From Bifidobacterium breve (GTDB taxonomy: Bacteria > Bacteroidota > Bacteroidia > Chitinophagales > Chitinophagaceae), in NCBI GenBank assembly GCA_943323935.2, contig CALPJR020000046.1, positions 1-6,703 on the forward strand: a DNA stretch of 6,703 nt, written 5' to 3'. The position numbers and the translations under genes are program-made. Below, piece after piece: positions 2,962-6,703 of the stretch; the first letter of the stretch is position 1, and every line of letters starts with the position of its first letter. The notes under the pieces are model-generated. The model made no database searches and was not told where the DNA came from. It worked only from the letters and a program-made list of their open reading frames with translations.

Positions 2962-3043
2962 GCGGATGTGGCGAAATTGGCAGACGCACTAGACTTAGGA
3001 TCTAGCGCCGCGAGGCGTGTGGGTTCGACCCCCTCCATCCGCA
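2962..3043 (+). tRNA. tRNA-Leu, anticodon UAG
   Basis: An 82-nt class II tRNA. The acceptor stem is GCGGATG/CATCCGC with discriminator A at 3043, and the D stem is GCG/CGC with GG in the loop. The anticodon stem CTAGA/TCTAG encloses loop CTTAGGA (anticodon TAG at 2996-2998), which reads CUA and other CUN leucine codons. The long variable arm CGCC-GCGA-GGCG and the discriminator A are leucine identity features. The T arm is GTGGG-TTCGACC-CCCTC, in which position 50 faces 64 as a U-U mismatch; all other stem pairs are intact. CCA is not encoded and would be added by nucleotidyltransferase. It has its own -7 box and an immediate downstream terminator. Confidence 0.97.
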
Positions 3044-3046
3044 CAG

Positions 3047-3156: not shown

Positions 3157-4518
3157 ATGGCAACCATAAAAAGAACCAACATTGCACCTTTAAATGATCA
3201 ATTAACGGTGACCATTTCAAAAGAAGATTATTTATCGACTTACGAGACAACCCTAAAGAAGCAAGCCAAAACGGCAAATATTCCAGGATTCAGAAAAGGC
3301 ATGGTGCCTGCTGGTATGATTAAAAAAATGTATGGACAAGCTGTTTTCACCGATGTGATTTTAAAATCGGTAGAACAAGAGATGAACCAATATATTTCTA
3401 AAGAGCAGATTGATATTTTCGCACAGCCACTTCCTTTGGCTACTGCATTTGCTAATATGGATCATAACAATCCAACCGATTATGATTTCTCTTTTGAAAT
3501 TGGATTAAAGCCAAAGTTTGAAATCAAAGCAAAAGACATCAAAGTAAAACGTTATAAAATTCAAGTGACAGACGAGATGATTCAAAGCGAAGTGGAGCGT
3601 CTACAAATCAGAAATGGCAACATGACTGAACCGGAAACTTCAACAAGTGAAGACAATGTATTGAACGTAACTTTTATTGAATCAGATAAAGACGGCAATG
3701 AAATCGAAGGCGGTATCAAAAAAGATAATTCTTTATTGATTAAATACTTTAGTGAAAAACAAAGAAAACAATTCATTGGTTTAAAGAACGAGGATACCGT
3801 TCATATTCAATTAAAGAATGCCTTTGATGACAAGGAATTAGATATTATTTTAAATGATTTAGCATTAACAAAGGATGACGCTGAAAAATATTTTAAACTA
3901 CTGATCACTAAAGTTGGCCTAGTGGAAAAAGCACCTTTAGATGAAACTTTATTTACAGTTACCTACCCTAATCAAGCCATCACCAACGAAGCTGAATTCA
4001 AAGCTGCAGTGCAACAAGATATCGAAGGGTACTATGCGCAACAAGCAAAAAATCAAGTACATGATCAAATTTATCATGGCTTAATTGAACAAACTAAAAT
4101 GGATTTTCCTGTTGCATTTTTAAAGCGCTGGTTGCAAAAAGGTGGAGACAAACAAAGAACAGAAGAAGAAGCAGAAAAAGAATACCCAGTTTTCCAAGAT
4201 CAATTAAAGTGGACTGTCATTAGTACACAATTAATTGCTGATCATAAAGTAGAAGTAGTAGCAGAAGATTTAAAGAGTTTTGCAAAGCAACAATTGATGA
4301 GTTATATGGGTGGCCAATTGGGTGCATTGGGTGACAATGACCAATGGTTAGAAGATTACGCTGCTCGTATGATGCAAGACAGAAAATTTGTAGAAGACAG
4401 TTACCACAGAATTAGCACAGATAAATTATTCAATGCTTTAGAAGCAGAAGTGACTGCCAAAGAAGAACCAATTGCAGCAGAGAAATTTGCAGATTTATTG
4501 AATAGCCATAAGCACTAA
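3157..4518 (+). CDS. tig: Trigger factor, ribosome-associated chaperone
   Basis: A 453-residue protein, close to the usual 430-450. Trigger factor docks at the ribosomal exit tunnel and shields nascent chains. The N-terminal ribosome-binding domain (about 1-150) carries the signature GFRKGMVP at 44-51. The middle segment (about 163-258) aligns with the FKBP-type prolyl isomerase domain through DGNEIEGG (179-186), but the aromatic residues that form the E. coli active site are mostly replaced: I183 where E. coli has F, NSLL for DFVL, QFIGL for MIPGFEDG. Isomerase activity is therefore doubtful. The C-terminal part (about 260-453) is the helical substrate-cradling region, rich in K, E and Q. 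The ATG at 3157 starts the canonical beta strand; there is no clear Shine-Dalgarno. It lies just ahead of clpP-clpX, a widespread arrangement, but is separated from them here by a terminator. Confidence 0.97.
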   Translation: MATIKRTNIAPLNDQLTVTISKEDYLSTYETTLKKQAKTANIPGFRKGMVPAGMIKKMYGQAVFTDVILKSVEQEMNQYISKEQIDIFAQPLPLATAFANMDHNNPTDYDFSFEIGLKPKFEIKAKDIKVKRYKIQVTDEMIQSEVERLQIRNGNMTEPETSTSEDNVLNVTFIESDKDGNEIEGGIKKDNSLLIKYFSEKQRKQFIGLKNEDTVHIQLKNAFDDKELDIILNDLALTKDDAEKYFKLLITKVGLVEKAPLDETLFTVTYPNQAITNEAEFKAAVQQDIEGYYAQQAKNQVHDQIYHGLIEQTKMDFPVAFLKRWLQKGGDKQRTEEEAEKEYPVFQDQLKWTVISTQLIADHKVEVVAEDLKSFAKQQLMSYMGGQLGALGDNDQWLEDYAARMMQDRKFVEDSYHRISTDKLFNALEAEVTAKEEPIAAEKFADLLNSHKH

Positions 4519-4536: not shown

Positions 4537-4563
4537 CAAAAGCCTCGAATTTCGAGGCTTTTG
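4537..4563 (+). terminator. Intrinsic terminator after tig
   Basis: A perfect 12-bp inverted repeat CAAAAGCCTCGA (4537-4548) and TCGAGGCTTTTG (4552-4563) with loop ATT, starting 18 bp after the tig stop. The T tract is only TTTT and then mixed, so release may be incomplete and some clpP transcription could come from read-through. Its centre is about 78 bp upstream of the predicted sigma-54 start site, so a second role as a DNA-binding palindrome cannot be excluded. Confidence 0.8.
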
Positions 4564-4600: not shown

Positions 4601-4617
4601 TTGGCACTCTTTTTGCA
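4601..4617 (+). promoter_or_regulatory. Sigma-54 (RpoN) -24/-12 promoter of the clpP1-clpP2-clpX operon
   Basis: TTGGCAC at 4601-4607, a five-base spacer, and TTGCA at 4613-4617 reproduce the sigma-54 consensus YTGGCAC-N5-TTGCW. The invariant GG (4603-4604) and GC (4615-4616) are separated by exactly 10 bp, as required. With C4616 at about -12, transcription would start near 4628, giving a leader of about 38 nt before the clpP1 ATG at 4666. The site is intergenic, points at clpP1 and lies after the tig terminator. An exact match to these ten defined bases is expected only about 0.01 times by chance in a window of this size, both strands counted. A sigma-54 promoter would need an AAA+ enhancer-binding activator; none is encoded here. 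Confidence 0.7.
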
Positions 4618-4638: not shown

Positions 4639-4646
4639 TACCTTTA
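4639..4646 (+). promoter_or_regulatory. Alternative housekeeping -7 box for clpP1
   Basis: TACCTTTA is one base off TAnnTTTG and lies 19 bp before the clpP1 ATG. With the TTTG at 4612-4615 as a -33 box the spacer is 23 bp, slightly long. It competes with, or adds a basal promoter to, the sigma-54 site, whose -12 element shares the same TTTG. Confidence 0.25.
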
Positions 4647-4665: not shown

Positions 4666-5352
4666 ATGAACATAGGAAAAGAATTCGAAAAATACGCGAT
4701 CAAACACAGGGGGATCGGAAGCAACAGTCTTCATCAATACCAAAATAGTGTGACCAATTTGACACCCTATATTATTGAAGAAAGACCAATGAATGTGGCA
4801 AGCATGGATGTGTTTAGCCGTTTGATGATGGATAGAATCATTTTCTTAGGCGAAGGCATCAATGACTATGTGGCCAATATTGTTACAGCACAATTGCTTT
4901 TCCTTGAAAGTACAGACCGCACAAAGGACATTCAAATGTACATCAATAGCCCAGGCGGAAGCGTCTATGCCGGCTTAGGCATTTACGATACCATGCAATT
5001 TATTAGCCCAGACGTGGCTACTATTTGTACCGGTATGGCAGCAAGCATGGGTGCGATTTTATTATGCGCTGGTGTGGAAGGTAAAAGAACTGCTTTAAGA
5101 CATAGCAGAATCATGTTACACCAACCAAGTGGTGCCATTGGAGGACAAGCATCTGATATTGAAATCACCGCAAGAGAAATTAAGAAATTAAAACACGAAC
5201 TATACGAAGTCATTGCCACACATACCCATAAGGATGTCGAATTAGTTGCTAAAGACTGTGATAGAGATTTCTGGATGACCGCTGCCGAAGGCAAGGCCTA
5301 TGGATTGGTAGACGAAGTATTGTTAACCAACCCTAGAAAAGTAAAGAAATAA
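4666..5352 (+). CDS. clpP: ClpP1, ATP-dependent Clp protease proteolytic subunit
   Basis: A 228-residue serine peptidase of family S14 that forms the tetradecameric chamber of Clp proteases and degrades chains unfolded by ClpX. The triad is complete: S127 in GMAASMGA, H152 in MLHQPSG, and D201 in CDRDFWM; the Ser-His and Ser-Asp spacings (25 and 74) equal those of E. coli ClpP. INSPGGSV (93-100) forms the oxyanion/strand region. Residues 34-57 (PYIIEERP...DVFSRLMMDR) align with the mature E. coli N-terminus, so the first 30 or so residues look like a propeptide, longer than the 14 of E. coli. The ATG at 4666 has a purine-rich but weak ribosome site. It is the first gene of an operon with a second clpP 23 bp on and then clpX, downstream of a sigma-54-type promoter. 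Confidence 0.97.
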   Translation: MNIGKEFEKYAIKHRGIGSNSLHQYQNSVTNLTPYIIEERPMNVASMDVFSRLMMDRIIFLGEGINDYVANIVTAQLLFLESTDRTKDIQMYINSPGGSVYAGLGIYDTMQFISPDVATICTGMAASMGAILLCAGVEGKRTALRHSRIMLHQPSGAIGGQASDIEITAREIKKLKHELYEVIATHTHKDVELVAKDCDRDFWMTAAEGKAYGLVDEVLLTNPRKVKK

Positions 5353-5375: not shown

Positions 5376-5999
5376 ATGATACTGACCAATCGTTTTTTAA
5401 TGGAAGATGAGGAAGAACACAAAGAAGAAAAAAAAGAAGACAATGTGCCATCCTTTTTGAATAAAAAAATGGAACAAATCTTTTTTGAAAAAAGATCTAT
5501 CTATTTATGGGGCGTGGTAGACGATAAGTCTGCAAGAGATATTGTGACTAAGCTTTTATTATTGGATGCGGATAAACCAGGTGAACCAATCCATTTTTAT
5601 ATCAATAGCCCAGGTGGTGTGGTGACAAGTGGTATGGTGATGTTTGATACAATGAACTTAATTAAGAGCCCTGTGCATACCATTTGTATGGGCCTTGCTG
5701 CAAGCATGGGTTCGATCTTATTGAGTATGGGTGAGAAAGGTAAGCGTACTATTTTCCCACATGGTGAAGTGATGATACACCAACCAAGCTTGGGTGGTTA
5801 TTTTCAAGCAACAAGTGCAGACATCGAAATTCAGGCAGAGCAAATTAGAAAGACAAAAGAATTAGGTGCGCAAATTCTTGCTAAGAACTGTAATAAGTCA
5901 ATGGAGCAAATTATGGCCGATTTTGACAGAGACTACTGGATGAATGCCAAAGAAGCAGTTGAATACGGTATCGTAGATAAGATTGCTAAAAGTTTATAA
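5376..5999 (+). CDS. clpP: ClpP2, second ClpP-family proteolytic subunit
   Basis: A 207-residue S14 peptidase, clearly paralogous to but divergent from ClpP1 next to it. The triad is S110 (GLAASMGS), H135 (MIHQPSLGG) and D186 (FDRDYWM). A two-residue insertion between His and the handle helix ([11 protein letters not shown] against GAIGGQASD) lengthens the Ser-Asp spacing to 76. INSPGGVV is at 76-83. The N-terminus differs strongly: residues 10-23 are almost all E, D and K ([14 protein letters not shown]), and the stretch between P25 and R40 is about eight residues shorter than the axial-loop region of E. coli ClpP or ClpP1. The start at 5376 is the first ATG after clpP1; an ATG at 5400 (M9) is an alternative. 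It probably forms mixed rings with ClpP1, as tandem ClpPs do in several bacteria, but homomers are possible. Confidence 0.95.
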
Positions 6000-6016: not shown

Positions 6017-6703
6017 ATGAGTAAGACAGAAAATATACAATGTTCTTTTTGTGGCCGAAGCAGAGCGGAGGTAAAAATCCTAATTGCCGGACAAGAAGGT
6101 CATATTTGTGAGCACTGTATTGAGCACGCTCATGAAGTTGTCAATAAAGAATTTCATCAAAAAAAGGAAGCAGGCAAAGCAGGTACCCTAAAAGTACAAA
6201 AGCCTATTGCCATCAAAAAATTCATGGACCAATACATCATTGGCCAAGATGAAGCAAAGAAAATACTATGTGTGGCAGTATACAATCACTTTAAACGCAT
6301 CAACCTACCTAGCACCATCAAAGATGATGTAGAAATAGAAAAGAGCAATGTGATCATGATTGGTGAAACGGGCACAGGTAAAACATTACTTGCAAAAACA
6401 ATTGCTAAGCTTTTAAATGTGCCATTCGCTATTGTAGATGCCACTGTCTTTACAGAAGCTGGCTATGTTGGAGAAGATGTAGAGAGCATGTTAACCCGTC
6501 TATTACAAAACTGCGACTATGATGTAGAAGCAGCGCAAAGAGGTATTGTGTATATAGATGAGATTGACAAAATAGCACGCAAAAGCGATAACGCTTCCAT
6601 TACTCGTGATGTAAGTGGCGAAGGGGTGCAACAAGGTTTATTAAAAATGCTTGAGTGCACAGAAGTATTGGTACAACCACAGGGTGGAAGAAAGCATCCA
6701 GAC
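6017..6703 (+). CDS. clpX: ClpX, AAA+ unfoldase, N-terminal 229 codons (cut by window edge)
   Basis: The protein runs open to the last base, which ends codon 229 of a usual 400-430, so the truncation is only the window edge. ClpX unfolds tagged substrates with ATP and threads them into ClpP. Visible parts: a zinc-binding domain with C9-x2-C12 and C31-x2-C34; the start of the AAA+ module with [13 protein letters not shown] (69-81); Walker A GETGTGKT (116-123); pore-1 loop GYVG (149-152); Walker B IVYIDEID (177-184); and the pore-2 RKHP (225-228). Walker A has Glu where most ClpX proteins have Pro (GPTGSGKT), and C214 sits where LEGT is usual. The ClpP-docking IGF loop and sensor 2 are beyond the edge. 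The ATG at 6017 follows clpP2 by 17 bp with no Shine-Dalgarno; co-transcription with both clpP genes is likely. Confidence 0.97.

What the first reader, a model, noticed from the sequence alone, without database searches (positions are those of the whole stretch)
4601..4617. Exact sigma-54 promoter in front of the clpP1-clpP2-clpX operon
Seen: TTGGCAC-N5-TTGCA with the 10-bp GG/GC spacing, intergenic, correctly oriented, 48 bp before the clpP1 ATG and just after the tig terminator. Known: sigma-54 promoters are silent without an AAA+ enhancer-binding activator and are tightly switched. Inferred: the main housekeeping unfoldase-protease of this organism would be on an activator-gated promoter rather than heat-shock sigma-32, CtsR or HrcA control. 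I know of no standard description of clpP/clpX under sigma-54 in Bacteroidota.
Basis: partly seen in the sequence, partly recalled or inferred. Interest (0 to 1): 0.72.

Follow-up and report, generated by a model that had tools for sequence, protein, structure and literature searches.

The report
Stress-switch promoter before ClpP protease genes
A small freshwater bacterium and dozens of its close relatives carry a conserved activator-dependent (sigma-54) promoter in front of their main protein-degrading machine, which probably ties it to the same switch that controls the cell's chaperones, on top of an ordinary always-on promoter.

Summary
The site is real. TTGGCAC-N5-TTGCA lies at 4601-4617, 48 bp before clpP1, and is the best sigma-54 match in the window. 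GG-N10-G is kept in 63 of 63 close-clade sequences, window included. A matrix trained only on sites before dnaK, grpE, lon, groES and htpG scores it at a level reached by 1 of 250 control upstreams. rpoN is in 17 of 17 relatives; 59 of 64 close genomes show exactly one match to one activator protein; HrcA in 0 of 15. Most likely clpP1-clpP2-clpX belongs to the sigma-54 protein-quality regulon of Bacteroidota.

Two corrections. That regulon is in print for Flavobacterium psychrophilum (groESL, lon, dnaK, grpE-dnaJ, htpG, clpB), though clpP is not in the selection printed. And a conserved sigma-A-like -7 box (TACCTTTA, 4639-4646) argues against an operon silent without its activator.

The consensus site is clade-specific: matrix score of 13 or more in 62 of 63 close, but 1 of 31 more distant, 0 of 24 and 0 of 37 still more distant upstreams. 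Distant relatives carry TTTGCA[CT]-N5-TTG instead, with a TGNC dyad about 24 bp upstream. No transcript was mapped.

The parts
4601..4617 (+). Sigma-54-type promoter element TTGGCAC-N5-TTGCA (-24 box 4601-4607, -12 box 4613-4617), predicted start about 4628
4639..4646 (+). TACCTTTA, candidate primary-sigma -7 box (TAnnTTTG with A for the last G); predicted start about 4651
   Evidence: 1.9 bits mean over the TTTACCTTTAC block in 63 close sequences; TAnnTTTG enriched upstream of other genes, 64 of 186 vs 13.5 shuffled, but the A-ending form TA[CT]CTTTA only 4 of 186 vs 1.8; start position by the -12 to -5 convention of PMC9723704
4537..4563 (.). Inverted repeat, likely tig terminator
   Evidence: 13-bp arms, perfect; not reported by the terminator scan
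3157..4518 (+). tig (trigger factor), upstream neighbour
4666..5352 (+). clpP1, first gene behind the promoter
5376..5999 (+). clpP2, second ClpP paralogue
6017..6703 (+). clpX, N-terminal part, cut by the window end
   Evidence: PRK05342, residues 4-228 of the fragment

Best explanation
The clpP1-clpP2-clpX operon has two stacked promoters. The upstream one (4601-4617) is bound by RNA polymerase with sigma-54 in a closed state. It is opened by a PspF-like enhancer-binding ATPase encoded elsewhere, in a miaB-EBP-lptE-(unnamed)-secG gene group, which also drives dnaK, grpE, groESL, htpG and lon, so that protease and chaperones rise together under protein-folding or envelope stress. The downstream one (-7 box 4639-4646) is read by the primary sigma factor and supplies housekeeping levels. 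Shown by sequence: the conserved -24/-12 element, its likeness to elements before chaperone genes of related genomes, rpoN in relatives, usually one activator of this kind in the close clade, the conserved second box. Inferred: binding, dependence on sigma-54 and on this activator, the stress signal, the basal role of the second box.
For: Exact -24/-12 element with correct spacing and place. Kept in 63 of 63 close-clade sequences with GG-N10-G, 62 of 63 with TTGGCA[CT]N5TTG; 1.87 and 2.0 bits in the two boxes against 0.42 in the stretch upstream. Matrix from chaperone and lon sites (clpP1 excluded) gives 16.3; 1 of 250 control upstreams as high. The pattern TTTGGCAYN5TTG gives 58 matches in seven close genomes against 5 for the reversed pattern; 13 of the 30 loci looked at precede a start: clpP1, lon, secA, lemA (three each), pirin (one). 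rpoN 17 of 17. One strong PF00158 protein in 6 of 7 close genomes, none in G004; exactly one match at E<=1e-20 in 59 of 64. That protein is AAA+ from residue 12, lid, Fis-type HTH, no sensor domain. HrcA 0 of 15. Sigma-54 chaperone regulon with mapped starts in F. psychrophilum (PMC9723704).
Against: No transcript data. The consensus form is confined to the close clade: matrix score >=13 in 1 of 31 clpP1 upstreams at 82-89% ClpP1 identity, 0 of 24 further loci L018-L043, 0 of 37 loci L044-L080. The matrix is partly circular, and with one gene left out the sites above the 99% control level are dnaK 11/11, lon 11/13, but grpE 4/14, groES 3/12, htpG 1/10. No activator-site dyad at the usual place before clpP1 in the close clade: 2 of 63 against 7.7 in shuffles. 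clpP is not in the printed selection for F. psychrophilum. 17 of the 30 pattern loci lie inside reading frames. The activator was not found in 4 of 64 close MAGs that have the site or gene.
Confidence: 0.7

Rival explanations
1. An ordinary primary-sigma promoter: TTTTTG (4610-4615) acts as the -33 element and TACCTTTA (4639-4646) as the -7 box; the TTGGCAC part is coincidence or an accessory site.
For: The -7-like block is conserved to 1.9 bits and lies 23 bp after the TTTG; relatives that lack the upstream element keep TATCTTCA (L012, L013, G019, G094).
Against: It does not explain invariant TTGG at the -24 box in 63 sequences or the likeness to chaperone promoters. The TTTG-to-box distance of 23 bp is longer than the usual 19-21 bp (spacing recalled, not looked up). 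TA[CT]CTTTA is hardly enriched by itself (4 of 186 vs 1.8).
Confidence: 0.12
2. The conserved element is a binding site for another regulator or sigma factor that resembles a -24/-12 promoter; sigma-54 is not involved.
For: In more distant relatives the element is a conserved TTTGCA[CT]-N5-TTG (26 of 31 have [GT]GCA[CT]N5TTG, 0 of 31 TTGGCA[CT]N5TTG), with T where sigma-54 sites have G, and it is nearly private to clpP1 (9 exact matches in 8 genomes, 8 at clpP1).
Against: The window clade has the full sigma-54 consensus and scores like dnaK and lon sites. The distant form keeps the 10-bp spacing and a dyad placed as in dnaK and grpE promoters (27 of 28 anchored).
Confidence: 0.12
3. A sigma-54 promoter, but answering a signal other than protein damage, for example nutrient state or surface growth.
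For: secA, lemA and pirin also carry sites; in F. [quoted passage not shown]
Against: The genes with the best-supported sites, dnaK and lon, are protein-quality genes; the activator gene sits beside groESL in Formosa. No expression data for this clade.
Confidence: 0.25

Closest known systems
Sigma-54 (motif SM4) promoters of Flavobacterium psychrophilum before groESL, lon, dnaK, grpE-dnaJ, htpG, skp, clpB (PMC9723704, Table 2A)
   Same: -24/-12 element before protein-quality genes in a Bacteroidota member; a sigma-54 regulator gene next to lptE, with locus tags close to groESL
   Different: clpP/clpX is not in the printed selection; three PF00158 proteins there against usually one match in the window's clade; the regulator-lptE transcript there starts from another motif (SM5)
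Predicted sigma-54 heat-shock cluster of Bacteroidota and Planctomycetota (PMC12316311, passages seen)
   Same: Predicted sigma-54 control of GroEL/ES, DnaK/J, GrpE and the ATP-dependent proteases COG0542, COG0466, COG1066
   Different: 'clpP' and 'COG0740' do not occur in its main text; Chitinophagaceae are not mentioned there ('chitinophag' 0 occurrences)
PspF and its psp regulon of Enterobacteria (recalled, not looked up)
   Same: Activator made of AAA+ and HTH only, without N-terminal sensor domain; stress regulon through sigma-54
   Different: Targets here are chaperones and proteases; long linker between AAA+ and HTH; no PspA-like inhibitor was looked for
Sigma-32, HrcA or CtsR control of clp and chaperone genes in other bacteria (recalled)
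   Same: Co-regulation of Clp protease with chaperones
   Different: HrcA not found in 15 of 15 relatives; sigma-32 and CtsR not tested

Membership tests
Sigma-54-dependent promoter | GG-N10-GC -24/-12 element (TGGCAC-N5-TTGC) | tested here: met
   Exact at 4601-4617; GG-N10-G in 63 of 63 close sequences, the base after that G is C in 32 of 63
Sigma-54-dependent promoter | Genome encodes RpoN | tested here: met
   17 of 17 relatives; the window's own genome is not held, so this is by kinship
Sigma-54-dependent promoter | Genome encodes an AAA+ enhancer-binding protein | tested here: met
   One or more matches at E<=1e-20 in 60 of 64 close genomes; by kinship only
Sigma-54-dependent promoter | Upstream activator-binding site | tested here: not met
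   Dyad half-site 23-26 bp upstream, as in chaperone promoters: 2 of 63 close clpP1 upstreams vs 7.7 in shuffles. Sites elsewhere were not excluded, and strong sigma-54 promoters can do without one (recalled)
Sigma-54-dependent promoter | Transcription start about 12 bp after the -12 box, lost without rpoN | not testable with these tools
   No expression data
Bacteroidota sigma-54 protein-quality regulon | Same element before chaperone and protease genes of related genomes | tested here: met
   60 of 62 upstreams of dnaK, grpE, lon, groES, htpG taken as having a site, sites picked by consensus score; left-one-out support strong for dnaK and lon, weaker for grpE and groES, poor for htpG
Bacteroidota sigma-54 protein-quality regulon | clpP-clpX reported as a member | tested here: inconclusive
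   Not in the printed selection of PMC9723704; its full Table S2 was not available
Primary-sigma (sigma-A) promoter of Bacteroidota | TAnnTTTG -7 box near the start with a -33 TTTG about 19-21 bp before (spacing recalled) | tested here: inconclusive
   TACCTTTA matches but for the last base and is conserved; the TTTG before it is 23 bp away
PspF-like enhancer-binding protein | AAA+ sigma-54 interaction domain plus HTH, no N-terminal sensor domain | tested here: met
   PF00158 residues 12-178, AAA_lid_14 184-263, HTH_8 377-413 of 417; GSFTGA loop seen in the sequence

The most novel reading that the evidence does not exclude
In these streamlined Chitinophagaceae one sensorless PspF-like ATPase, the only sigma-54 activator seen in most genomes, is the master heat-shock regulator: it drives chaperones, Lon, SecA and ClpP-ClpX through sigma-54, with HrcA absent. 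Its binding site would be the TGNCA-N3/4-TGNC element phased about 24 bp before the -24 box, unusually close for an enhancer. At clpP1 that element was lost in the single-activator clade while the -24/-12 boxes rose to full consensus, as expected if an enhancer is needed mainly to tell activators apart.
Probability: 0.3. Interest if true: 0.72.

Novelty: new member of a known kind. Interest (0 to 1): 0.5.

Why it matters
It adds the central Clp protease to an activator-gated stress regulon that is in print for one Flavobacterium and predicted for the phylum. It also points to a small, testable system: genomes of about 2 Mb with one visible sigma-54 activator and few likely targets. One could ask how a bacterium without HrcA senses misfolded protein through an ATPase that has no sensor domain, and what enhancer sites are for when only one activator exists.

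Tried and rejected
Chance match: rejected. A scan of the window's own genome was not possible; relatives were used. The first sigma-54 scoring script had the -12 box misplaced by one base; its numbers were discarded and the scan redone. A strict dyad pattern found both half-sites 18-30 bp before the site in 1/11 dnaK, 2/14 grpE, 5/12 groES, 7/10 htpG, 0/13 lon and 25/26 distant clpP1 upstreams; I then counted single half-sites, a looser test chosen after seeing the first.

Rows dropped before counts. Training set: I hand-picked 62 upstreams from the matches (12 of 16 Cpn10, 11 of 13 HSP90, 14 of 14 GrpE, 11 of the HSP70 matches, 14 of 18 Lon; paralogues, fragments and cut-off genes left out), then dropped lon_G013 and htpG_G012, leaving 60. 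Close clade: G116 (contig ends before the site), G053 (75 bp upstream, not fetched) and G022 (ClpP1 cut at a contig start, 96%; no activator match) are outside the 63; with G022 the activator count would be 59 of 65. The 59 include G080 and G150, whose single match is weak or a fragment. One search left G076 and G126 out of the distant set; one search left nothing out and could anchor 28 of 31. Of 58 pattern matches the 30 with loci were examined. Of 140 genomes with a ClpP1 match, clpP1 upstreams of 94 were taken.

Control sets: one search used 250 upstreams of other genes from 43 sources (window and loci L001-L043 without L023), one search used 186 from a smaller set. One top control hit (L036, 18.5) may itself be a true sigma-54 site; it was left in.

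Paper searches behind 'clpP under sigma-54 in Bacteroidota not seen in print': (listings only, except: PMC9723704 section 15 read and passages; PMC12316311 passages and outline; PMC3162934 passages, no Bacteroidota there). Supplements were not available and most subscription journals are not held.

Full report
WHAT IS THERE. The window (6703 bp; no whole genome is held for it) carries tig, a 147-bp gap, clpP1, clpP2 and the start of clpX. The gap holds a perfect inverted repeat (4537-4563), TTGGCAC-N5-TTGCA (4601-4617), TTTTACCTTTAC (box TACCTTTA at 4639-4646) and then the clpP1 ATG at 4666. The site is the single perfect TGGCACN5TTGC of the window; 0 of 5000 dinucleotide shuffles of the gap made it, and 5 of 5000 reached its matrix score.

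CONSERVATION. A scan of genome contigs with ClpP1 gave 80 loci. L001-L006 and L014 (92-99% ClpP1 identity) all keep TTTGGCA[CT]-[CT]CTTTTTG, starting 65 or 67 bp before the ATG. A genus-level search gave ClpP1 matches in 140 of 147 genomes. I took clpP1 upstreams from 94 of these (and loci L003-L006); with the window that is 95 rows, 64 at 92% identity or more and 31 at 82-89%. Of the 64, G116 has no sequence at the site. In the other 63, GG-N10-G is present in 63 and TTGGCA[CT]N5TTG in 62; the exception, G030, reads ATTGGTATAC. Mean information is 1.87 bits in the -24 box, 2.0 in the -12 box, 1.9 in the TTTACCTTTAC block, 1.28 between them and 0.42 in the 58 columns upstream. The upstream flank has drifted while the site has not; part of the downstream likeness is common descent.

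WHAT IT RESEMBLES. I took upstreams of groES, htpG, grpE, dnaK and lon from up to 15 relatives. Nearly all show a TGG[CT]A element with the right spacing: lon TTGGCATNAATATTG, dnaK ATGGCATAATGATTGA, grpE TTGGCAAAATTTTTGA, groES more variable, htpG TTGGTAC-N5-TTG. A matrix of 60 such sites, clpP1 excluded, gives the window 16.3; 1 of 250 control upstreams reaches that. This is partly circular, since the reference sites were picked by consensus score within position limits set after a first look. With one gene left out, sites above the 99% control level are dnaK 11/11, lon 11/13, grpE 4/14, groES 3/12, htpG 1/10, and above the 95% level 11, 13, 13, 11 and 5. So dnaK and lon are firm, grpE and groES fair, htpG weak. 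The pattern TTTGGCAYN5TTG in seven close genomes gave 58 matches against 5 for the reversed pattern. Of the 30 loci returned, 13 precede a start codon: clpP1, lon, secA and lemA in three genomes each and pirin in one (families); 17 lie inside reading frames.

THE MACHINERY. RpoN is in 17 of 17 relatives. Of seven close genomes six have exactly one strong PF00158 protein and G004 none. With that protein as query, 59 of 64 close genomes have exactly one match at E<=1e-20, one has two (the one listed is a fragment), four have none. All are draft genomes of untold completeness. The protein is 417 aa in G001: AAA+ from residue 12, lid, long linker, Fis-type HTH, no sensor domain. It lies in the order miaB-EBP-lptE-unnamed gene-secG; in Formosa (L133) groES and groEL follow directly. 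HrcA was found in 0 of 15 genomes, the control ringing in 7 of 14 reference genomes. Sigma-32 and CtsR were not tested.

A SECOND BOX. TACCTTTA at 4639-4646 fits the Bacteroidota -7 box TAnnTTTG but for its last base. TAnnTTTG is strongly enriched upstream of other genes (64 of 186 against 13.5 in shuffles); the A-ending form TA[CT]CTTTA is not clearly so (4 against 1.8). Relatives that lack the upstream element keep TATCTTCA (L012, L013, G019, G094). The simplest reading is two promoters, a basal one and an activator-gated one.

A PHASED UPSTREAM ELEMENT. A TGN[CA] half-site starts 23-26 bp before the site in dnaK 10 of 11, grpE 13 of 14, groES 8 of 12, htpG 7 of 10 and lon 0 of 13, with shuffle means of 1.2 to 1.6 per gene. 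In distant clpP1 upstreams, where the element reads TTTGCA[CT]-N5-TTG, it is at the same place in 27 of 28 anchored (28 of 31) against 3.2 in shuffles; in the close clade in 2 of 63 against 7.7, though a half-site at 17 bp is left in 10 of 63. It has the look of an activator site that the close clade gave up at clpP1. Which protein binds it is unknown.

AGAINST THE SIMPLE STORY. The distant form has T, not G, at the first of the two -24 guanines and is nearly private to clpP1 (9 exact matches in 8 genomes, 8 at clpP1). Matrix score of 13 or more: 62 of 63 close, 1 of 31 distant, 0 of 24 loci L018-L043, 0 of 37 loci L044-L080; the degenerate [GT]GCA[CT]N5TTG is in 62, 26, 7 and 1 of these. So the consensus site is a feature of one clade, and whether the distant forms are sigma-54 sites is open.

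LITERATURE. PMC9723704 (section 15 read) maps 5' ends in F. psychrophilum and finds sigma-54-type (SM4) promoters before groESL, lon, dnaK, grpE-dnaJ, htpG, skp and clpB; reporter mutagenesis confirmed the motif for another operon, remFG-sprCDBF. It lists a probable sigma-54 regulator with lptE under motif SM5 and three PF00158 proteins. PMC12316311 (passages) reports the same functional group as enriched among predicted targets in Bacteroidota. Neither text as seen names clpP. Nine paper searches listed no paper that by title or abstract start describes clpP or clpX under sigma-54 in Bacteroidota; most subscription papers are not held.

VERDICT. A real, conserved sigma-54-type promoter; probably a new member of a known regulon; probably paired with a basal promoter. 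Binding, activation, signal and both start sites are unproven.

Noticed in passing
L104, L106, L112 (secA); L101, L103, L111 (lemA); L102 (pirin): TTTGGCA[CT]-N5-TTG sites also stand just before secA, lemA and a pirin gene in close relatives: possible further members of the regulon.
   Followed up: partly
G089 clpP1 upstream (locus L303), about 86 and 75 bp before the ATG: Two overlapping sigma-54-like elements: a new high-scoring one (17.6) whose -12 box is the -24 half of the old distant-type element. Looks like promoter turnover caught in the act.
   Followed up: no
L109, L122, L099, downstream of the lon site: In close relatives a TGTCAATTTGGC / TGCCATTTTGAC-like dyad lies downstream of the lon sigma-54 site, not upstream; an enhancer placed downstream is conceivable.
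   Followed up: no
L036 at 14291: A control gene's upstream has GTGGCATCATGATTGCG (score 18.5), very like the dnaK sites; the gene behind it was not identified.
   Followed up: no
L012, L013, G019 (L297), G094 (L298) clpP1 upstream: The sigma-54-like element is missing and the gap short, while the TTATCTTCA box is kept.
   Followed up: partly
L014 upstream of clpP1: Two near-identical GGGGGCTTTTGC terminator-like stems in tandem before clpP1 in the closest fetched locus.
   Followed up: no
window 2962-3044: A tRNA-Leu gene sits between a small protein gene (2456-2932) and tig.
   Followed up: no
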